From Fructilactobacillus cliffordii (GTDB lineage: Bacteria; Bacillota; Bacilli; Lactobacillales; Lactobacillaceae), in contig NZ_CP097117.1 of the NCBI RefSeq assembly GCF_024029355.1, positions 744,001 through 808,000 of the forward strand: a stretch of DNA of 64,000 nt, read 5' to 3'. The translations under genes were made by a program, and so were the position numbers. Each line of letters begins with the position of its first letter. Position 1 is the stretch's first letter. The notes beneath the pieces are model-generated. The model made no database searches, was not told the origin of the DNA, and worked only from the letters and a program-made list of their open reading frames with translations. Shown one piece after another: positions 9,163-64,000 of this stretch.

Positions 9163-9378
9163 TTAATTTTGTTTTCTGCGTTTCCACACGTAATACAGCG
9201 TAACGGCACCGTACGGAATGTAGGCACAAACTACGAGAATCGCGAGGATAATCACTAAGGGTGTGACTTCTTTTTGCACAAAGTAGGCCACAATCAACGC
9301 CAAACACAGCGGGGTAATCGTCCAATTAGCAATCCGCCGTAGTTTGATTAAGCGTTGATCAATCTCATCTTGCTTCAT
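9163..9378 (-). CDS. Small two-helix membrane protein, function unknown
   Basis: The 71-residue product has a charged N-terminus, two hydrophobic segments (about residues 18-34 and 40-62) and a basic end (WKRRKQN). Ribosome site AAAGGAG precedes the ATG. It is the last gene of a tight four-gene unit, 18 bases after the nitroreductase gene, and a terminator follows directly. I do not recognise a family. Confidence 0.7.
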   Translation of the reverse strand: MKQDEIDQRLIKLRRIANWTITPLCLALIVAYFVQKEVTPLVIILAILVVCAYIPYGAVTLYYVWKRRKQN

Positions 9379-57444: not shown

Positions 57445-58643
57445 GCTTTCCTCCGTGATGATGTCGTCGTATGGTTATAAAATAACACGACCACCAGCGC
57501 AATTAAAATCGAGAGGCCGGCCAACGCAAACAGAACAGAATAGTTCAGCCATTCGACCATCAGACCACCAAACAAGGGACCGACTGCTCGGCCAAAGGAC
57601 ATGAAGACGTTGAACATCCCCTGGTACTGACCCTTAGAGCGCGGATCAGCTAAACTGTCAATCCACGCGGGAATGGCGGGAAGTCCGTTCATTTCTCCAA
57701 TCGTTAGGATAATCATGATGATAATGAACCAGTGATACTGACGCGCCCAGATTAACATGAAAAAGGTCGAAGCAAATAGAGTAACTCCAAACGCAATTTG
57801 GGGTACCATCCGAAAGCGCATCCCGATTCGATTGATCAGTGGTTGCCCAATCACAATTAACAACCCGTTAATCGGCCAAATAAAACTGTACTGTTCAAAG
57901 GAGATGTGCAGGTCCTGCATGTGAACTGGCATGACACTTTCCCACAGGGTGTAACTCAAATAAATAAAAAAGACCATGCCACAAATGAGCCAGATTAACC
58001 GCGGATTCGGCTGGGGCGCGGGTCCCATATCCACCTGAGCATCCGGTTGTTGGTGCGGATGGACTTGCACTGGAGGAAACTTAACGTTAAACTCAAGAAT
58101 CGTCATAATCAATAGAATGACGTAGAAAAACGAAGCAACCGCAAAGACAACTCCAACGCCGTACTTCATCAAGTACCCGACCGCGGCGGTTCCAATTACA
58201 ACCCCTAGGTTCACGCCGATGTACACCGAGTTAAACACCTGCCGGGTACTTTTACTGCGCACCTTGGCCGCATATGCGTTAAGGATGGTTAAACTGGATC
58301 CTTCTCCTAGTCCATATACGAACAACATGATGGCAAACATGGGCCAGCCGTGGGAGAAGATTAGTACCACGACCGCCGCCAGAGCAATGGAGATGCTAAT
58401 GATGGCAGTTTTGTACGGCGACCACCGGTCAAAGAGCCGGCCACCGAGATAATTTCCCAATACCATGAAACAAGACATGATAAACAACACCACTCCCGCG
58501 ACCGTTAAGGACTCGTGGAGCGTGTTATGCATGTAAACGGTGGTCAACGGCCACATTAAGGCTGCTCCAGAATTAAGAAGTAATGAATAGATTAAGACTG
58601 AAGTCAGTCGAATTTCCGAACGAGGCGTTTTCGTCATGCGCAA
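57441..58643 (-). CDS. MFS family transporter
   Basis: The 400-residue protein has twelve membrane helices with a central cytoplasmic loop. The conserved loop after helix 2 reads GNYLGGRLFDRWSPYK, the usual GxxxD-(R/K)-x-G-(R/K) region of the DHA1 group. FNSVYIGVNLGVVIG and RAVGPLFGGLMVEWL fit the pattern of proton-driven multidrug or peptide exporters. Four bases of its end overlap the UvrA-like gene (ATGA), so the two are translated together. Confidence 0.87.
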   Translation of the reverse strand: MRMTKTPRSEIRLTSVLIYSLLLNSGAALMWPLTTVYMHNTLHESLTVAGVVLFIMSCFMVLGNYLGGRLFDRWSPYKTAIISISIALAAVVVLIFSHGWPMFAIMLFVYGLGEGSSLTILNAYAAKVRSKSTRQVFNSVYIGVNLGVVIGTAAVGYLMKYGVGVVFAVASFFYVILLIMTILEFNVKFPPVQVHPHQQPDAQVDMGPAPQPNPRLIWLICGMVFFIYLSYTLWESVMPVHMQDLHISFEQYSFIWPINGLLIVIGQPLINRIGMRFRMVPQIAFGVTLFASTFFMLIWARQYHWFIIIMIILTIGEMNGLPAIPAWIDSLADPRSKGQYQGMFNVFMSFGRAVGPLFGGLMVEWLNYSVLFALAGLSILIALVVVLFYNHTTTSSRRKA

Positions 58644-58799
58644 TCCCTCCTAGATAATTAGTCATTTCTTCTATTCTCGCACAAATTCATGGGTTTCAAA
58701 AGAAACGGTTCTGGCTTTAAAGCGTGGTAAAATATGGATACTTAGTTACGAACCAACCTAATTTTAACCAACAATAGCAACTCGAAAGGAAGTCCCTTT

Positions 58800-59639
58800 A
58801 TGATTCATATCGTTACGGATTCAACCGCCCAACTAACCCCCGAAGAAATTAAAGACAATGATTTACACGTCATCCCGTTGCAAGTCAGCTTTGAAGGCAA
58901 AACTTACCAAGATAACGTGGACATCACCCGGCAACAATTTTCAGAAATGCTCCATGATGACGAAACGGAATTCCCCAAAACTAGCCAACCAGCCATGGGT
59001 CAATTCGTAGAAACTTACGAACAAATCTTAAAGGACGATCCCGATGGGAGTATCGTTTCAATTCACATCACCCGCATCCTTAGTGGAACCGTCGAAACAG
59101 CCCAATCGGCTGCCCAACAAGTGAACGGTGACATTCGGGTGATTGATAGTAAATCAACCGACCGGGGACTTGGTTTTGAAGTCCTAAAAGCTGCTGAATT
59201 AGCAAAGGCTGGAAAATCGGCGGAAGAAGTGGAAAATGGCGTGATTGCCATGATTCCTGAAATTAGCTTACACGTGTTCGTGAACAGCTTTGATTACCTG
59301 GTTAAGGGTGGTCGTGCTAGCCGTGCCGTTGGGTTCATTTCCTCCCTCATTCAGCTCAAACCCGTCTTAGCTCTTAACGATGGTAAGCTCGAAATCGTGG
59401 CTAAATGTCGCGGTGCTAAAAAGATGCGGAAGGTCCGCGATGAAATTACGGAAACCCTCATTAACGATCCGACGGTGAAGGAGGTCGGCCTCTCCTACGT
59501 GGACTCTACCGAAGACGTTGACGCTGTGGTCGCTCGCATTAAGGAAGCCCGTCCAGACATTAATGTGTTAGTCCGCCTGACCTGCCCTGTCATTATGACC
59601 CACGTAGGTCCTGGTGGCTTTGCCATTATTTACAACTAA
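58800..59639 (+). CDS. DegV family fatty-acid-binding protein
   Basis: The 279-residue protein has the DegV N-terminal VTDSTAQLTPEEI, HITRILSGTVETAQSA with the lipid-headgroup Ser, and SRAVGFISSLIQLKPVL. A late HVGPGGFAI also fits. DegV/FakB proteins bind fatty acids and present them to the kinase FakA for phospholipid synthesis. No fakA gene is seen. GAAAGGA precedes the ATG. Together with oleate hydratase, it implies handling of external fatty acids, though the genes are far apart. Confidence 0.88.
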   Translation: MIHIVTDSTAQLTPEEIKDNDLHVIPLQVSFEGKTYQDNVDITRQQFSEMLHDDETEFPKTSQPAMGQFVETYEQILKDDPDGSIVSIHITRILSGTVETAQSAAQQVNGDIRVIDSKSTDRGLGFEVLKAAELAKAGKSAEEVENGVIAMIPEISLHVFVNSFDYLVKGGRASRAVGFISSLIQLKPVLALNDGKLEIVAKCRGAKKMRKVRDEITETLINDPTVKEVGLSYVDSTEDVDAVVARIKEARPDINVLVRLTCPVIMTHVGPGGFAIIYN

Positions 59640-59657
59640 ATTTATGAAGCAAAAAAC

Positions 59658-59707
59658 AAGCGCTCTCACAGAATTAGCTATTTTTCTAATTCCATGAGAG
59701 CGCTTTT
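59658..59707 (+). terminator. Rho-independent terminator after the degV-type gene
   Basis: AAGCGCTCTCA and TGAGAGCGCTT frame a longer stem that also includes GAATTAG/CTAATTC, followed by TT and then CGG. The stem is strong and the T run short. Confidence 0.75.
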
Positions 59708-59750
59708 CGGTTAAGATAACCGTATATAAGATAAGGGTTTCGTGGCCAAA

Positions 59751-59787
59751 GAAAAAAGTGTACCTAAATGGGTAATTTAGGTACACT
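59751..59787 (-). terminator. Minus-strand terminator beyond the small membrane protein gene
   Basis: AGTGTACCTAAAT and ATTTAGGTACACT form a perfect 13-bp stem, followed on the minus strand by TTTTTTC. The nearest minus-strand gene upstream of it is the DUF1906 gene ending at 60437, so its transcript may run antisense through the plus-strand gene at 59903-60436 before stopping here. Confidence 0.72.
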
Positions 59788-59798
59788 CAAAAGACACA
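59774..59798 (+). repeat. Left copy of an imperfect direct repeat flanking the accessory block
   Basis: The 25 bases match 63699-63723 at 21 positions; all four differences are A/G changes. The shared core is TACACTCA-AAG-CACA, and some AT-rich similarity continues for about 20 bases. Confidence 0.55.
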
Positions 59799-59902
59799 CG
59801 TCTATTATTGTAAAACATTCAAGAACTATACTATCATTAATGATGAATATTGGGTTAATTAATAAAAGTTCCGGAATCCACTAATAATAACAGGAGAATC
59901 TC

Positions 59903-60436
59903 ATGCTTAAAATTTTTAAAGATAATCCACTTAATCTTAAGACTTTAACAAAAATGGTGATCTTCTTTTTAGCTATTTTATCACTATTTATGTCATTAAT
60001 TTTTATTACTGATTTTGATACAACTAAAGTTGCATTAATATACTTACATCCCAATGAGCCCATCATTACTGGTCTTATCCATGACGTAGTATTAGCAATA
60101 ATAATCTTATTTTTGGCATTAATTCCAATTCCCAAACTGTTTATGGTTGTTCCTTTTCTAAATGCATTGGTTTTTGGATTCATATTTCCAATCTTGATAA
60201 TAAATCCCAACACAGCAATTGCAAGATCATTAATGAATAACATGCTAAATTCAATTTTAGTTCTATTGTCATTTTTAATCGCATGTACTATTGCAAATTT
60301 CGTGAATGTATCTGTTTGTAAAAAAGTATATAAACACCAATCTATAAGATTAAAAGACGTAATTAAGCAAGCAGCTAAATTATATTTTCTTTATGCATTT
60401 CCAGTGTTAATTATATCTTTATTATTCATATCGTAA
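59903..60436 (+). CDS. Uncharacterised polytopic membrane protein next to the DUF1906 gene
   Basis: The 177-residue product has about five hydrophobic helices (residues 17-38, 58-80, 82-103, 117-138 and 159-177) with a basic stretch KKVYKHQSIRLKDVIKQ before the last. AGGAGAA precedes the ATG. The gene is unusually AT-rich with ATA codons, unlike its neighbours to the left, suggesting acquisition. Its stop abuts the stop of the convergent DUF1906 gene with no base between. It could be an immunity, holin-like or transport partner, but no family is recognised. Confidence 0.65.
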   Translation: MLKIFKDNPLNLKTLTKMVIFFLAILSLFMSLIFITDFDTTKVALIYLHPNEPIITGLIHDVVLAIIILFLALIPIPKLFMVVPFLNALVFGFIFPILIINPNTAIARSLMNNMLNSILVLLSFLIACTIANFVNVSVCKKVYKHQSIRLKDVIKQAAKLYFLYAFPVLIISLLFIS

Positions 60437-62587
60437 TTATCTAAGTAAATTTAAGAGAAATTCTATAAATTGGGGAGATGTTAGAAAAGCGAATAGGGCG
60501 GCTAAAGCAGCGAGAGCCACTTTTCCTGAACTAACAGACTTAGTAGCAATAAATTGGATAACTACATTAGCAAACGATTCTACATCATAAGCAACGACTC
60601 CGTATAATCTGCTTACGTCTTTTACTGCTTCAGTACCATACTTCTCAATTTTCTCGATATTAGGGAGTTTCTCTTCCTTAATTTTCATTGTAATCGTGTA
60701 AGATAATTCCCCGGATAATTCTTTATTGCCTACTTTAAATACGTTAACAGTAGTTGAGATCTCGGCTTCTCCAAACTGAATACTGGCTCCAATGGATAAA
60801 TTGCCTAGGTCAACGTTCGCAGTGAACTTGAAGTTATTTACATAATCATCCAACATATTGTATAGATTTTGAGAATCTTTAAATCCATTTTCTGTTAAAT
60901 ATCTAAACAAGCCATCTTTAGTAAATTTACCATTTTGAATATCAATGTAGCCATGTCCTTCTTGTACAGTATATTTTTGATCGACCTTTACAGAAAGTTC
61001 GACTGCACCGATATTAATAATGTCATATGTTTTGCCATAGTCTAATGAAAAGTCACCAAAAATTTTTTTCATGGCTTCGGTTGGACTAATGGTATTTCTA
61101 GGAGCTGGCTTAAACTTGTTAGCTCCCTTATCTTTACCAGATGAAGCATCTTGATCAATTGCGATATCTGCAAAGTTATATTCGGTAAATTGATCAATAG
61201 ACCAACCATCTGGCATTTTGTAGCCTAAGTTCCCACTGTAACCAGTAGACATATCGGAAACAAAAGCATTTACTGCATAACCCCGTTTTAGTGTTTTACT
61301 GCATACATTTCTGGTTCCATAAATACCTACTTTAAAACGTTTACTAATAGCATAATTAACAGCTTCCATATATGGAATAACCGTTCCGGCAATATCTCCA
61401 TCTTGAATGTCAGTATCCACAGCAAAATAAATGGTAGTTCCTTCAGAGAATCCCAATTCAATTGCTTTAGAAGTTGCAATTCGTGCATCAGAGAATCCTT
61501 GAGCTGCAGTAAAGTACGATTGATCGCCATCATTATCCTGGTAAATGGGAAAAATATGCAAACCGGCGTTTACCAAATCTTCAATCTCACTCGGGATTAA
61601 ATTTTTTTGCCGCCGATTTGAACCAGTACCCACCGTTCCAGTTAAATACCGACCAATTAAATTAAAACCATAACTTTTGAGTTTTTTAGCTGTTGAACTG
61701 GAGACTTGGAATGAGGTATCACAAGCGTCAGAGTCACGGTTAGTATCACCATTGGAGGTTAATAATCCCTTGATTACAGCTAAGTTAGCGGATCCATTGT
61801 AAGGTGGAAGTTTCATAAAATTCCGAAAGTTGAATACCGCATTAGCAACGTTACTTCCATAAATCCCGTCAAAAGGTCCATCGTAAAATCCGTTTACCAT
61901 TAAACCATATTGAATAACTTTAACAATCGGACCACTGGTACCTTGATAAATCGTTGGCGTTAATCTAATGGTACCGGGACCATAAACTCCATTTGCCTGA
62001 CTAGTAGACATACCTTCAGTTGCTTGTAAGGCATAAATTAAAGCGGTATTAGTGTTTCGTTGGTAAAGACCATCAGTGGGAACTAAGCCTAAATCATCAC
62101 CAAAGTAACTAAGATAGTTATGATTCAGGTATTGTTGCATTTTTCGGATAGCAGTAGTACCCCCACCTAATAATTTAAAGGCACTCATATCAAACAAAGC
62201 GGCCATTAAAGGAACCGTTAAATTACCACTGGGTAGCCCTGCATCTTGACGCAATTCGTCTACTGCAGTTTGCATTCCTTTAGAAAATTTAGTGTTAAAG
62301 GCAGCTGGACTATAACCTTTACACCAAAAAGCACCTTGAATTAATTTAGCGATGTTGCCTTTATAACCTACCCGATATTTAGCTACTTGGCCTGCTAAGG
62401 CTGACTTAGTATGGTCCCCAAAGCCACTGGACACAGGATTAATGCCTAATTCGTGCTGTAATCCTTCACGTAAAGCATAAATGGTCTTCCAACCAGTTTG
62501 GCCATTTTCATTAACCTTGGTGTAGCCACTTACCTTTCCGTATTCTGAATTTAACCATTTTTGTACTTTTAAAACTTGTTGATCCAT
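60437..62587 (-). CDS. Peptidoglycan-binding repeat / DUF1906 glycoside-hydrolase-like protein
   Basis: The 716-residue protein has four peptidoglycan-binding-like repeats in residues 1-270 (e.g. VKVIQYGLMVNGFYDGPFDG). A DUF1906 (Rv2525c-type) barrel follows at about 290-480, with NLIGRYLTG, IFPIYQD, TIYFAVDTD and WSIDQFTEY. The C-terminal region of about 235 residues is unrecognised and ends in a hydrophobic tail (VALAALAALFAFLTSPQF). There is no signal peptide, so release would need lysis, a holin or an unknown route. ATG 62587 has GGAGG upstream. The gene lies divergent from an XRE/ImmA pair. Confidence 0.8.
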   Translation of the reverse strand: MDQQVLKVQKWLNSEYGKVSGYTKVNENGQTGWKTIYALREGLQHELGINPVSSGFGDHTKSALAGQVAKYRVGYKGNIAKLIQGAFWCKGYSPAAFNTKFSKGMQTAVDELRQDAGLPSGNLTVPLMAALFDMSAFKLLGGGTTAIRKMQQYLNHNYLSYFGDDLGLVPTDGLYQRNTNTALIYALQATEGMSTSQANGVYGPGTIRLTPTIYQGTSGPIVKVIQYGLMVNGFYDGPFDGIYGSNVANAVFNFRNFMKLPPYNGSANLAVIKGLLTSNGDTNRDSDACDTSFQVSSSTAKKLKSYGFNLIGRYLTGTVGTGSNRRQKNLIPSEIEDLVNAGLHIFPIYQDNDGDQSYFTAAQGFSDARIATSKAIELGFSEGTTIYFAVDTDIQDGDIAGTVIPYMEAVNYAISKRFKVGIYGTRNVCSKTLKRGYAVNAFVSDMSTGYSGNLGYKMPDGWSIDQFTEYNFADIAIDQDASSGKDKGANKFKPAPRNTISPTEAMKKIFGDFSLDYGKTYDIINIGAVELSVKVDQKYTVQEGHGYIDIQNGKFTKDGLFRYLTENGFKDSQNLYNMLDDYVNNFKFTANVDLGNLSIGASIQFGEAEISTTVNVFKVGNKELSGELSYTITMKIKEEKLPNIEKIEKYGTEAVKDVSRLYGVVAYDVESFANVVIQFIATKSVSSGKVALAALAALFAFLTSPQFIEFLLNLLR

Positions 62588-62660
62588 GTTAATTTCCTCC
62601 ATTTGTATAATTGAATTGTGAGTAATTAGTACTAATTAAGCTATATAATCTATAATTACG

Positions 62661-62689
62661 TTGCTTATTGTAGATAAATAGTCTACAAT
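62661..62689 (+). promoter_or_regulatory. Candidate promoter of the XRE-immA genes
   Basis: TTGCTT (62661-62666) and TACAAT (62684-62689) are 17 bases apart. The start of RNA would be near 62696, giving a leader of about 140 bases that begins at the hairpin at 62693-62731. Confidence 0.5.
62667..62689. promoter_or_regulatory. Palindromic operator overlapping the XRE promoter
   Basis: ATTGTAGA and TCTACAAT are perfect inverted copies seven bases apart. They fill the spacer and -10 of the promoter TTGCTT-17-TACAAT (62661-62689). An XRE dimer binding here would block its own promoter. Confidence 0.6.
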
Positions 62690-62692
62690 GGT

Positions 62693-62731
62693 GACAAATA
62701 AAAAGCCAACACGTCTGTTGGAGTTATTTGT
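62693..62731 (-). terminator. Hairpin/attenuator in the divergent control region
   Basis: CCAACA and TGTTGG form a stem around a four-base loop, extended by ACAAATAA pairing with TTATTTGT outside an internal loop. On the minus strand the inner stem is followed by CTTTTT, as in a terminator, so a transcript from the promoter at 62761-62789 could end here. Confidence 0.5.
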
Positions 62732-62760
62732 TCTTCGTAATCAATTAGATTACAAGAAAC

Positions 62761-62789
62761 ACTATATATACTAATTTTCTAAATGTCAA
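62761..62789 (-). promoter_or_regulatory. Strong minus-strand promoter facing the XRE promoter
   Basis: TTGACA (62784-62789) and TATAGT (62761-62766) are 17 bases apart on the minus strand. RNA would start near 62754 and run leftward into the hairpin and then toward the DUF1906 gene. A second palindrome, ATAGAA-AAATA-TTCTAT (62797-62813), lies just upstream of the -35. Confidence 0.65.
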
Positions 62790-62837
62790 CCAATAAATAG
62801 AAAAATATTCTATAAAGATGAAGGGAAAGTGCTGCAA

Positions 62838-63155
62838 ATGTCGATTTATCAACGGATTAAGGAATTAGCCAAAAATAAAAATATTTCCATTCGCGAATTA
62901 GAACATCAACTGGGTTTCCCTAATGGAACTTTACAGAAATGGGTTGATAACGCTAATTCACAAAAATTAAAGAAAGTAGCCAATTACTTTAACGTTTCCA
63001 CTGATTATCTCTTGGGGAACGGGGAACGGCCTACCGCTGATTTAGACGATTTAGAAACCATTATGATGTTTGGAGGAAAACCGGTGCCAGAAGAAGATAA
63101 GCAAACTGTTCTGGAAATTTTAAGGAGGCTCAGAGATGCAAGAGATCATAAATAG
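62838..63155 (+). CDS. XRE family helix-turn-helix repressor
   Basis: The 105-residue protein opens with IYQRIKELAKNKNISIRELE, a lambda-Cro/C1-type helix-turn-helix, continuing to FPNGTLQKW and NVSTDYLLG. The C-terminal half is short and acidic. It is of the size and type of phage and ICE repressors such as ImmR. ATG 62838 is preferred over GTG 62829 by homologous N-termini; AAGGGA lies upstream. The end overlaps the ImmA-like gene by 20 bases, as expected of a coupled repressor/antirepressor-protease pair. Confidence 0.88.
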   Translation: MSIYQRIKELAKNKNISIRELEHQLGFPNGTLQKWVDNANSQKLKKVANYFNVSTDYLLGNGERPTADLDDLETIMMFGGKPVPEEDKQTVLEILRRLRDARDHK

Positions 63156-63546
63156 CCTGTTTAACTACGCGTTAAATCATGATATTGGAGTGGTTTACAC
63201 TGATAAGTTGATGCCAGAAACAAAGTCATTTGCTGACATTCCTACACGCTCGATTGTGATTAATGCAAACGAACCTAATCAGCGGCAATTACCCCTTATT
63301 ATTGCTCATGAAATTAGTCATGTAGTCCAGTGCGATACGAATGATGCTCAGTTAAACTTTTCAACGGCGCTCAAACCACATTACGAGCAAAAAGCTAACA
63401 TTGGGGCCATTGACTTATTAATCCCATTTTATGTAGAAGATAAAGAACTGGATCAAATTAACGTGGACGAGTTTATGCAGCTATTTGCAATTCCCAGTTC
63501 TTTACGGGATATCTGTATTACTGAAATGAAAAATAACATTAACTAA
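63136..63546 (+). CDS. ImmA/IrrE family metallopeptidase
   Basis: The 136-residue protein has IIAHEISHVVQ, the HExxH zinc-protease motif of the ImmA/IrrE family, preceded by RSIVINANEPNQRQLPLI. Proteins of this group cleave partner XRE repressors after stress or cell-cell signals and so release repressed genes; ICEBs1 ImmA/ImmR is the model. Its translation start lies inside the XRE gene with AAGGAGG upstream. A strong terminator follows. Confidence 0.88.
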   Translation: MQEIINSLFNYALNHDIGVVYTDKLMPETKSFADIPTRSIVINANEPNQRQLPLIIAHEISHVVQCDTNDAQLNFSTALKPHYEQKANIGAIDLLIPFYVEDKELDQINVDEFMQLFAIPSSLRDICITEMKNNIN

Positions 63547-63549
63547 ATA

Positions 63550-63595
63550 AAAGAAGCCAGCCTTACTAATTATTTTAGTAGGGCTGGTTTCTTTA
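63550..63595 (+). terminator. Terminator after the ImmA-like gene
   Basis: AAAGAAGCCAGCC and GGGCTGGTTTCTTT, with TTACTAA/TTTAGTA inside, form a long stem ending in T residues. Confidence 0.85.
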
Positions 63596-63698
63596 AATTT
63601 TATAAGTAATTGCACAATTTGATTGTTATTTTTACTATCTAGGGATTCAGTGGGTTACTCAGCTAAAATTAATTCACTAAATTTAATAGTACTCTGGA

Positions 63699-63723
63699 AA
63701 TTTAAATACACTCAGAAGGCACA
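63699..63723 (+). repeat. Right copy of the imperfect direct repeat flanking the accessory block
   Basis: It matches 59774-59798 at 21 of 25 positions in the same orientation. It is followed by a 14-base palindrome (ACAAATATATTTGT, 63721-63734). The 257-base gap between the ImmA-like gene and the toxin fragment otherwise shows only the terminator at its left end. Confidence 0.55.
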
Positions 63724-63803
63724 AATATATTTGTATACATTACCACAAGTAGTAATGTAGATTTTACTACTTTATACTTGTTTCTGTAATTTATTAATAT
63801 TTA

Positions 63804-64000
63804 TTATTCAAACAAGTCTGAATGACTACCGGTATCAATGAATTTAATATAATCACCATCGTACCGATAAATCAAAAGCCAATCTGGTTTAATGTGAAGT
63901 TCTCGTTCAGGTTTTCGATTTATGAGGTTATGGTCGTTAAACTTAGCTGGAATTTCTTCATCGTTAATTAATAAGTAATATATTTCATTGAATTGATTTT
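63804..64000 (-). CDS. YafQ/RelE family type II toxin, partial at the right edge
   Basis: The last 65 codons of a minus-strand gene are visible, ending at TAA 63804. They include RELHIKPDWLLIYRYDGD and TGSHSDLFE. These match the C-terminal block of YafQ-type mRNA interferases, with the His, Asp-Trp and final His that form the RNase site. The N-terminus and the expected antitoxin gene lie beyond 64000. All visible catalytic residues are present, so it is probably functional. It is too short for simple listing because the window cuts it. Confidence 0.8.
   Translation of the reverse strand, partial: NQFNEIYYLLINDEEIPAKFNDHNLINRKPERELHIKPDWLLIYRYDGDYIKFIDTGSHSDLFE

What the first reader, a model, noticed from the sequence alone, without database searches (positions are those of the whole stretch)
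59903..63546. Candidate new system: peptidoglycan-binding/DUF1906 protein, membrane partner and XRE-ImmA switch
A protein with four wall-binding repeats, a glycoside-hydrolase-like barrel and an unknown C-terminal region with hydrophobic tail has no signal peptide. It lies against an AT-rich polytopic membrane protein and is divergent from a phage-type repressor with its activating protease. No capsid, integrase or other phage gene is present. This looks like a small inducible module, perhaps a wall-active effector with an immunity or release protein, turned on when ImmA cleaves the repressor.
Basis: inference. Interest (0 to 1): 0.75.

Follow-up and report, generated by a model that had tools for sequence, protein, structure and literature searches.

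The report
Bac41-like effector, immunity, phage-type switch
A lactic acid bacterium carries what looks like a protein weapon against its relatives: a wall-binding protein with an exchangeable, probably membrane-attacking end and a matching protective membrane protein, apparently held off by a switch of the kind phages use.

Summary
The 721-aa protein (probably 716) has four wall-binding repeats, an Rv2525c-like barrel and a C-terminal domain with a hydrophobic tail. It is a homologue of BacA, an effector of Enterococcus faecalis bacteriocin 41 (Bac41); the convergent membrane protein sits where an immunity gene belongs.

Evidence for an effector-immunity pair: the first 490 residues are conserved and the last 220 exchanged; the next gene covaries with the exchanged end; one sister species has swapped exactly C-terminus plus next gene; in two Clostridium proteins tested the same front carries RHS repeats.

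The XRE-ImmA pair belongs to it: in 10 genomes of the genus both occur in the same six, adjacent and divergent, with conserved palindromes (TAGA-N7-TCTA) between them. A 99%-identical ImmA copy in one relative lies beside a gene with BacL1 architecture.

Killing, immunity, release and ImmA cleavage are inferred. The C-terminal domain has no significant match among solved folds.

The parts
59903..60436 (+). 177-aa polytopic membrane protein, proposed immunity protein, convergent with the effector
   Evidence: ORF; six hydrophobic segments; no Pfam, PHROG, NCBIfam or PDB hit. In 10 genomes of the genus found only in G000 and G004 (86% id), the two sharing this effector C-terminus at 98.6%. Position and covariation.
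60437..62602 (-). BacA-like effector, 721 aa (probable start at 62587, 716 aa)
61760..62581 (-). four three-helix peptidoglycan-binding-type repeats (residues 3-276 of the 716-aa form)
   Evidence: Model (pLDDT mostly 92-98); one repeat over cut-off by Pfam; weak match to SleB N-terminal domain 6tci (phmmer E 0.0011)
61142..61741 (-). Rv2525c-like glycoside-hydrolase-type barrel (PF08924)
   Evidence: Pfam E 1e-46; Foldseek 4pmr E 3.5e-7, TM 0.78 by target
60440..61102 (-). exchangeable C-terminal domain (strand-rich part plus hydrophobic helices at about 60440-60658), proposed membrane-acting toxin domain
   Evidence: Profile family 60 of 85; held-out match to the C-domains of the pMG2200 and pUAMSEL3 proteins; model pLDDT 76, pTM 0.73; no significant PDB fold match
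62798..62812 (.). palindrome 1, TAGA-N7-TCTA, proposed operator next to the effector promoter and upstream of xre
   Evidence: present in all 7 close XRE-ImmA loci of the genus
62671..62685 (.). palindrome 2, TAGA-N7-TCTA, proposed operator
   Evidence: exact in 6 of 7 loci, one mismatch in G002
62761..62789 (-). sigma-70-type promoter towards the effector, TTGACA-17-TATAGT
   Evidence: 11 of 12 consensus matches, largely conserved in the loci aligned. The scan as a whole found no more promoters than shuffles (14 against mean 19.4).
62706..62721 (-). terminator-like hairpin in the effector leader (possible attenuator)
   Evidence: 171-nt leader z-score -3.6; in G003 a hairpin of different sequence near the same place (read)
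62829..63155 (+). XRE-family repressor (probable start 62838)
   Evidence: HTH_3; 81-100% identical copies beside the other five effectors of the genus and a near-identical one beside the BacL1-like gene of G004
63136..63546 (+). ImmA-like metalloprotease (Peptidase_M78), proposed anti-repressor
   Evidence: phrog_87 metallo-protease; present in the same 6 of 10 genomes as the effector

Best explanation
The module is a chromosomal antibacterial effector-immunity pair of the Bac41 BacA type under a phage-type switch. Proposed working: (1) the XRE repressor sits on the TAGA-N7-TCTA operators in the divergent promoter region and keeps the effector, and probably its own gene, low; the membrane immunity protein is made separately from the opposite strand. 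(2) On DNA damage or another stress the ImmA-like protease cleaves the repressor and the effector is made. (3) The effector has no signal peptide, so it leaves by lysis of some producers or by an unknown route. (4) Four peptidoglycan-binding repeats and the Rv2525c-like barrel dock it on the wall of related cells. (5) The exchangeable C-terminal domain, with its hydrophobic helical tail, damages the target membrane; cells with the cognate membrane protein are protected. Shown here: gene content, domain architecture, exchange of C-terminus plus next gene, co-occurrence of the switch, conserved palindromes in the shared intergenic region. Inferred: every biochemical step.
For: Homology to the BacA-position protein of Bac41-type loci on pMG2200 and pUAMSEL3 (42-45% id). 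A C-domain profile built without those two finds both (14.9 and 13.8 bits; best of 850 shuffled decoys 11.7), the reverse profile finds the window (13.1 bits), and hhalign aligns 188 columns, probability 86. Front residues 1-480 show 40-64% mean identity per 30-residue bin to 72 relatives, residues 511-720 12-17%. The next gene has 2 or more hydrophobic segments in 63 of 80 loci, the upstream gene in 13 of 66. C-domain and next gene are related together in 44 pairs against a shuffled mean of 4.9, maximum 14 in 2000. G000 against G001: left flank 96.6% identical but about 59835-61128 (C-domain plus immunity gene) replaced; G000 against G004: the four-gene block 94.9%, left flank 82.9%. XRE-ImmA in the same 6 of 10 genomes as the effector. 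Operator core TAGANTATTTNTCTA exact only twice in G000, both here. A second G004 copy of the switch faces a lysozyme + Amidase_5 + SH3 gene with BacL1's architecture.
Against: No activity data. The 177-aa protein shows no sequence similarity to any characterised protein in the libraries searched. Only 44 of 297 related C-domain pairs have a detectably related next gene, and 8 related next-gene pairs lack related C-domains (no correction for phylogeny). No BacL1-like lysin in this genome, while a paper passage calls BacA a co-factor of BacL1. The C-domain has no significant fold match and the tail is modelled poorly (pLDDT below 50 over most of 644-716 in the full-length model), so 'membrane-acting' rests on hydrophobicity and on the membrane nature of the partner. 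The operator core also occurs once exactly at an unrelated place in G005, and with one mismatch in all ten genomes. In the genus the effector is split in G001 and lacks the tail in G003, and immA is interrupted in G005.
Confidence: 0.66

Rival explanations
1. The effector is not itself a toxin but an activator or wall-docking co-factor for a peptidoglycan hydrolase supplied by another locus, as BacA is described for BacL1; the partner protein protects the wall or its synthesis.
For: A passage on Bac41 calls BacA a co-factor of BacL1. G004 has a BacL1-like gene beside a copy of the same switch.
Against: Only 1 of 10 Fructilactobacillus genomes has Amidase_5 over cut-off, against 6 with the effector. 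Only 4 of 85 relatives' loci show an Amidase_5-type neighbour, two of them Bac41 loci (BLAST with a few queries in about 6 kb of flank, so a lower bound). The same front carries RHS repeats and other ends in Clostridia, which fits a carrier of toxins better than a co-factor.
Confidence: 0.15
2. Leftover of a prophage: a lysis-region or moron gene with the phage's repressor and anti-repressor, now without function as a unit.
For: XRE and ImmA match phage regulator families. Distant paralogues of ImmA (47-50% id) lie in regions of G002 and G003 that read as prophage (integrase-like and other phage-like ORFs). 44 loci in viral contigs encode relatives; in one (L178) a relative lies with a phage repressor, SPP1 holin, Amidase_5 endolysin and integrase.
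Against: I read no holin, phage lysin, integrase or structural gene beside the window module. XRE-ImmA and effector stay together in six genomes, the four-gene block is shared between two species above the level of the flanks, and the palindromes are conserved down to 66% ImmA identity. Relatives are in 546 plasmid records but only 2 of 50,697 phage records.
Confidence: 0.09
3. Self-directed (abortive-infection or addiction) use: the switch senses phage or DNA damage and the effector kills or lyses the producer itself, with the membrane protein as antitoxin.
For: Phage-type switch; no signal peptide; toxin-antitoxin genes next door (63804-64335); many relatives on plasmids.
Against: Four wall-binding repeats and a wall-type barrel would be of no use inside the cell. 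Exchange of C-terminus plus partner between close species is typical of competition between relatives. A related protein is an extracellular component of Bac41 (passage: BacL1 and BacA are secreted individually).
Confidence: 0.07

Closest known systems
Bacteriocin 41 (Bac41) of Enterococcus faecalis: BacA with its downstream immunity genes (the names BacI1/BacI2 are recalled)
   Same: PG-binding repeats + Rv2525c-like barrel + C-domain of the same distant family; small membrane-protein genes directly downstream; a variable downstream region linked to specific immunity (review passage)
   Different: Here no bacL1, bacL2 or holin gene beside it; proposed immunity gene convergent instead of co-directional; XRE-ImmA switch with conserved palindromes; chromosomal; the immunity protein is not recognisably related
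Polymorphic toxin systems (PGBD + Rv2525c-like carriers, RHS toxins)
   Same: Constant front, exchangeable C-terminal end, linked partner gene. TelC toxin domains fused to PGBD and an Rv2525c-like barrel are in print (eLife 2025, passage). In Clostridium the same front carries RHS repeats, in one case with a weak nuclease-like end
   Different: The C-domain here is another family, strand-rich with a hydrophobic helical tail, without a known fold
ImmR/ImmA of ICEBs1 and the CI-like/MpaR switch of the Listeria monocin
   Same: Repressor gene followed by an M78/DUF955 metalloprotease gene, divergent from the controlled genes; the monocin switch controls a bacteriocin (passages; ICEBs1 abstract)
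   Different: Here it faces a single large effector gene, not a phage-tail cluster; in G004 a copy faces a separate lysin gene; cleavage untested

Membership tests
Bac41-type bacteriocin determinant | BacA-type effector architecture | tested here: met
   tblastn 42-45% id to the proteins in the pUAMSEL3 and pMG2200 Bac41-type loci; C-domain by held-out profile
Bac41-type bacteriocin determinant | BacL1 lysin (lysozyme + Amidase_5 + SH3) in the same genome | tested here: not met
   No Amidase_5 match in G000; BacL1 search finds only weak matches to its SH3 part in G000. Met in G004 only, of 10 genomes.
Bac41-type bacteriocin determinant | Specific immunity gene linked to the BacA C-terminus | tested here: inconclusive
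   Linkage and covariation met; no sequence relation to a known immunity protein found; function untested
Bac41-type bacteriocin determinant | BacL2 regulator and holin-like gene | not tested
   Looked for only in loci around effectors: none in the five Fructilactobacillus loci among the 85; BacL2-like ORFs in 8 loci outside Bac41 (L057, L105, L111, L121, L123, L126, L140, L157). Whole genome G000 not searched for them.
Polymorphic toxin system | Conserved front, exchangeable C-terminus, covarying linked partner gene | tested here: met
Polymorphic toxin system | C-terminal domain is toxic and the partner neutralises it | not testable with these tools
   Needs expression tests
ImmR/ImmA-type switch | HTH repressor followed by M78 metalloprotease with HExxH, divergent from the controlled gene | tested here: met
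   HEISH read in the translation; orientation
ImmR/ImmA-type switch | Operators in the shared intergenic region | tested here: met
   Conserved palindromes, (sequence evidence only; binding not tested)
ImmR/ImmA-type switch | Protease cleaves repressor on a stress signal | not testable with these tools
   Inference from ICEBs1 and monocin
Prophage lysis module | Holin, endolysin and structural genes at the locus | tested here: not met
   None read (by reading ORFs; the PHROG search covers only the four proteins and the edge ORF)
Rv2525c-like glycoside hydrolase (PF08924) | Fold and family profile | tested here: met
   (160 bits, cut-off 27.2). Enzyme activity not tested.

The most novel reading that the evidence does not exclude
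BacA is not just a lysin co-factor. It is one branch of a widespread class of Gram-positive polymorphic toxins: four PG-binding repeats plus an Rv2525c-like barrel form the delivery part, and the C-terminal warheads are exchangeable. The commonest warhead is an undescribed membrane-active fold. In Fructilactobacillus the class is run by a stand-alone phage-type switch whose operators also stand before a separately located BacL1-like lysin, so a Bac41-like bacteriocin exists as a split, co-regulated regulon.
Probability: 0.45. Interest if true: 0.76.

Novelty: new variant of a known kind. Interest (0 to 1): 0.6.

Why it matters
If right, a protein now labelled 'glycoside hydrolase domain-containing protein' in many plasmid records is an antibacterial effector, and the small membrane gene beside it can be annotated as its immunity. 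It would change the reading of BacA from helper of a lysin to toxin carrier, give a new predicted membrane-acting domain to solve, and offer a narrow-spectrum bacteriocin of lactic acid bacteria with a clean on/off switch. The claim is directly testable with one protein and one membrane gene.

Tried and rejected
Endolysin of a prophage: rejected as the main reading because I read no holin, phage lysin or structural gene at the locus and relatives are far commoner in plasmid than in phage records, although 44 viral-contig loci hold relatives too. PHROG family 15213 (E 1.5e-130) is of unknown function, so it says nothing for lysis.

Known fold for the C-domain: PDB profile search, Foldseek against PDB and viral models gave nothing at E 0.001 or better (best E 0.013 and 0.005). 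Weak SciW/Eag-chaperone and START hits (TM at most about 0.34) were not used.

Immunity protein: no match in Pfam, PHROGs, NCBIfam, PDB or plasmid tblastn.

Orientation of the immunity gene as a mark of pore-formers (recalled from colicins): 30 convergent and 27 co-directional in the C-family, 8 and 15 in the rest; not decisive, dropped.

Rfam over 59600-64000: one chance match only. The first genome-contig scan with the single protein found no relative (39 pattern matches, none confirmed); the scan with alignment A1 did.

The sigma-70 scan as a whole found no more promoters than shuffles (14 against 19.4); the effector promoter is used only because it is conserved in place across loci.

The count of the C-domain family (60 of 85) depends on the profile: L061, not in the iterated list, does match the six-sequence profile (E 5e-8).

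In print or not: searches of the open-access PMC library only. Papers seen: passages of PMC8532689, PMC10746210, PMC12419801, PMC3482391, PMC9951850, PMC7117660 and PMC6872733; abstract and outline of PMC8960796; the rest as search listings. The Bac41 primary papers (Tomita 2008; Kurushima 2013 and later) were not read: one looked up by PMC id is not held; what goes beyond the cited passages is recalled.


Full report
WHAT IS THERE. The four ORFs are present at the stated coordinates. The window lies in a 1.46-Mb single-contig genome (G000). Two genomes of its genus have contigs of the same lengths and match positions as named records, Fructilactobacillus florum DSM 22689 and F. fructivorans DSM 20203 (L083, L084), so the genus is Fructilactobacillus; the species was not determined. 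The large protein has PF08924 (160 bits, cut-off 27.2) and one PG_binding_1 by Pfam. The AlphaFold model shows four three-helix units and a barrel, mostly at pLDDT 84-98, and the barrel matches the solved Rv2525c structure. Only the C-terminal tail passes the hydrophobicity threshold, so there is no signal peptide. The start is probably the ATG at 62587, preceded by GGAGGAA and matching the start of most relatives. The XRE and ImmA-like proteins score over Pfam cut-offs (HTH_3; Peptidase_M78).

RELATIVES. tblastn finds relatives in 546 of 72,556 plasmid records (384 Enterococcus, 72 Lactiplantibacillus; 124 cover at least 80% of the query) and in 2 of 50,697 phage records, one of them over 21% of the query only. 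In 350 Lactobacillaceae genomes drawn by the tool, 64 have a match at E 0.001 or better, in 19 of 40 genera; by my count of that table 48 of 350 have a match spanning at least 300 residues. In 398 Bacilli genomes 71 have any match, but only 8, the window's own included, match over most of the front part. A scan of named genomes gave 170 relatives, of which the tool kept 80, from Bacillus, Leuconostoc, Sporolactobacillus, Clostridium, Bifidobacterium and others.

LINK TO BAC41. On the E. faecalis plasmids pUAMSEL3 and pMG2200 the relative (42-45% identical) stands after a peptidoglycan amidohydrolase (the BacL1 position), a gene annotated bacL2, a phage-holin-family gene and one hypothetical gene, and is followed by small genes with hydrophobic segments. 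pMG2200 is described in passages as carrying a Bac41-type bacteriocin. The review passage says Bac41 shows partial diversity in the downstream region, linked to specific immunity factors; another passage describes BacA as co-factor of the endopeptidase BacL1. Calling this gene BacA is my assignment by gene order and recall; the records name it 'glycoside hydrolase domain-containing protein'.

THE C-TERMINUS IS AN EXCHANGEABLE DOMAIN. From 107 loci (111 hits) I used 96 effectors, 85 of them distinct; 15 hits were dropped (12 with a short front part, 3 without a closed C-terminus). Per 30-residue bin the front shows 40-64% mean identity to the window protein, dropping at residues 481-510 to 33% and then to 12-17% (72 relatives). 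An iterated profile from the window's C-domain collects 60 of the 85; 25 do not match. Because iteration can drift, I built a profile from six window-group C-domains only: it finds both E. faecalis C-domains with 14.9 and 13.8 bits, while the best of 850 shuffled decoys reached 11.7; the reverse profile, from the two E. faecalis domains, finds the window domain with 13.1 bits; profile-profile comparison aligns 188 columns (probability 86). The similarity is distant but collinear. The C-domain alone models at pLDDT 76, pTM 0.73 as strands plus C-terminal helices, with no significant match in PDB or viral model libraries. Other ends occur: three Clostridium proteins have 2149-2215 aa, and in the two tested the front is followed by RHS repeats; one of these has nuclease-like matches below cut-off at its end. 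In L124 and L127 (uncultured Clostridia) it is followed by weak hydrolase-like, Big_2 and dockerin parts. In L057 a second protein carries the same C-domain on a different, unassigned front.

THE PARTNER GENE. Of 85 effectors 80 have an ORF of at least 90 aa within 600 bp downstream (mechanical calls, not confirmed genes); it has two or more hydrophobic segments in 63 of 80, against 13 of 66 for the upstream neighbour. Among 3160 pairs of these loci, 297 have related C-domains, 52 have related downstream proteins, and 44 both; shuffling the downstream proteins gave a mean of 4.9 and a maximum of 14 in 2000. This is not corrected for phylogeny. By front identity, related downstream proteins among pairs with related C against pairs without: at 80-97%, 15 of 20 against 0 of 5; at 60-80%, 11 of 63 against 0 of 41; at 50-60%, 10 of 143 against 7 of 504; at 40-50%, 0 of 54 against 1 of 1600. 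Most related C-domain pairs (253 of 297) have no detectably related partner, which fits fast evolution of the partner but also limits the claim. The most direct evidence is at the DNA level. Between G000 and G001 the left flank (58001-59714) is 96.6% identical and 61129-67000 is 94.9%, but about 59835-61128, that is the C-domain and the immunity gene, finds no match in place. Against G005, G002 and G003 homology ends at 61129, 61107 and 61106. Between G000 and G004 the block 59747-63642 holding all four genes is 94.9% identical, while the left flank is 82.9%; to the right homology resumes only at 65009 in pieces of 74-93%. So the four genes have moved together. At 64425-64543 the window keeps 119 nt, 88% identical to the end of G001's immunity gene and what follows it, perhaps the scar of an earlier cassette.

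THE SWITCH. In 10 genomes of the genus the ImmA-like protein and the effector occur in the same 6. In all 6 the XRE-ImmA pair is divergent from the effector. Of the seven close ImmA copies (66% or more), six lie there. The seventh, in G004 and 99% identical, lies with its XRE beside a divergent 450-aa gene with Phage_lysozyme + Amidase_5 + SH3 domains, the architecture of the E. faecalis hydrolase in the Bac41 locus, 45% identical over its residues 5-391. Amidase_5 is over cut-off in only 1 of the 10 genomes, G004. Two more distant copies (47-50%) lie in regions that read as prophage; they lack the palindrome. The intergenic DNA of the seven loci aligns and holds TAGA-N7-TCTA palindromes: two exact copies in six loci, one exact plus one with a mismatch in G002. 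The core TAGANTATTTNTCTA occurs exactly twice in G000, both here; with one mismatch G000 has three further places, G005 has one exact copy elsewhere, and all ten genomes have matches with up to one mismatch. In the window TAGA-N7-TCTA occurs twice, both here, against 0.74 expected; 17 of 100 shuffles reach two, so the count alone is weak and the conservation across species is the argument. A good sigma-70 promoter points to the effector and a terminator-like hairpin lies in its leader. In G003 that place holds a hairpin of another sequence (read), which suggests attenuation or a guard against read-through. Whether XRE binds and ImmA cleaves is untested; the precedent is the Listeria monocin, where a CI-like repressor is paired with the metalloprotease anti-repressor MpaR, needed for induction under SOS (passages).

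HOW IT MOST LIKELY WORKS. Induced production, release by lysis of some cells, docking on the wall, membrane attack by the exchangeable domain, protection by the cognate membrane protein. The effector stands without a detected lysin in most loci: an Amidase_5-type neighbour is seen in 4 of 85, and any lysin-, holin- or BacL2-like neighbour in 16 of 85, some of them weak hits (BLAST with ten queries in the flanks held, so no full census). This favours a toxin in its own right over a co-factor, but is not proof.

RELATION TO PHAGES. In viral contigs 118 stretches matched, 52 were relatives, giving 44 loci. I looked at the genes of four and ran family searches on parts of three, L178, L180 and L181. 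L178 holds a phage repressor, DUF722, the effector, SPP1 holin, Amidase_5 endolysin and integrase; L181 holds phage-type replication genes around the effector. So phages and their remnants carry the effector too, and the Bac41 order of lysin, holin and effector may be a domesticated lysis region (inference).

VERDICT.

Noticed in passing
63804-64335 (- strand; past the window edge in L002:5804-6335): YafQ-like toxin with a RelB/DinJ-like antitoxin gene directly behind the module; identical proteins in G001, other small ORFs in that place in G004.
   Followed up: partly
L002:7148-7879 (65148-65879 in window numbering, beyond its end): A secreted LysM protein with a lysozyme-like end by its look (read only), 1.6 kb past the module; also near the module in G001 and G004. 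Probably a housekeeping wall protein.
   Followed up: no
L057:9998-12403: 801-aa protein with the same C-domain family on a different front without Pfam match; the locus also holds a GH25-like lysozyme, a holin-like ORF and BacL2-like pieces.
   Followed up: partly
L129, L132, L134 (Clostridium): The same PG-binding + Rv2525c-like front on proteins of 2149-2215 aa; the two tested (L129, L132) have 26 RHS stretches each, L129 also weak nuclease-like matches; downstream ORFs without clear membrane segments.
   Followed up: partly
L046:1591-5237 (Bombilactobacillus apium, same contig as L085): A run of ORFs, several strongly hydrophobic and in two paralogous families, behind the effector, which looks like an immunity array; this locus also has a distant XRE-ImmA pair divergent from the effector.
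   Followed up: partly
L078, about 9240-9335: A short, strongly basic ORF with a good ribosome-binding site between the switch and the BacL1-like gene of G004 (read); nature unknown.
   Followed up: no
L178 (viral contig): Phage repressor, DUF722, effector, SPP1 holin, Amidase_5 endolysin, nuclease-like protein and integrase within 13.5 kb: a possible phage-to-bacteriocin intermediate.
   Followed up: partly
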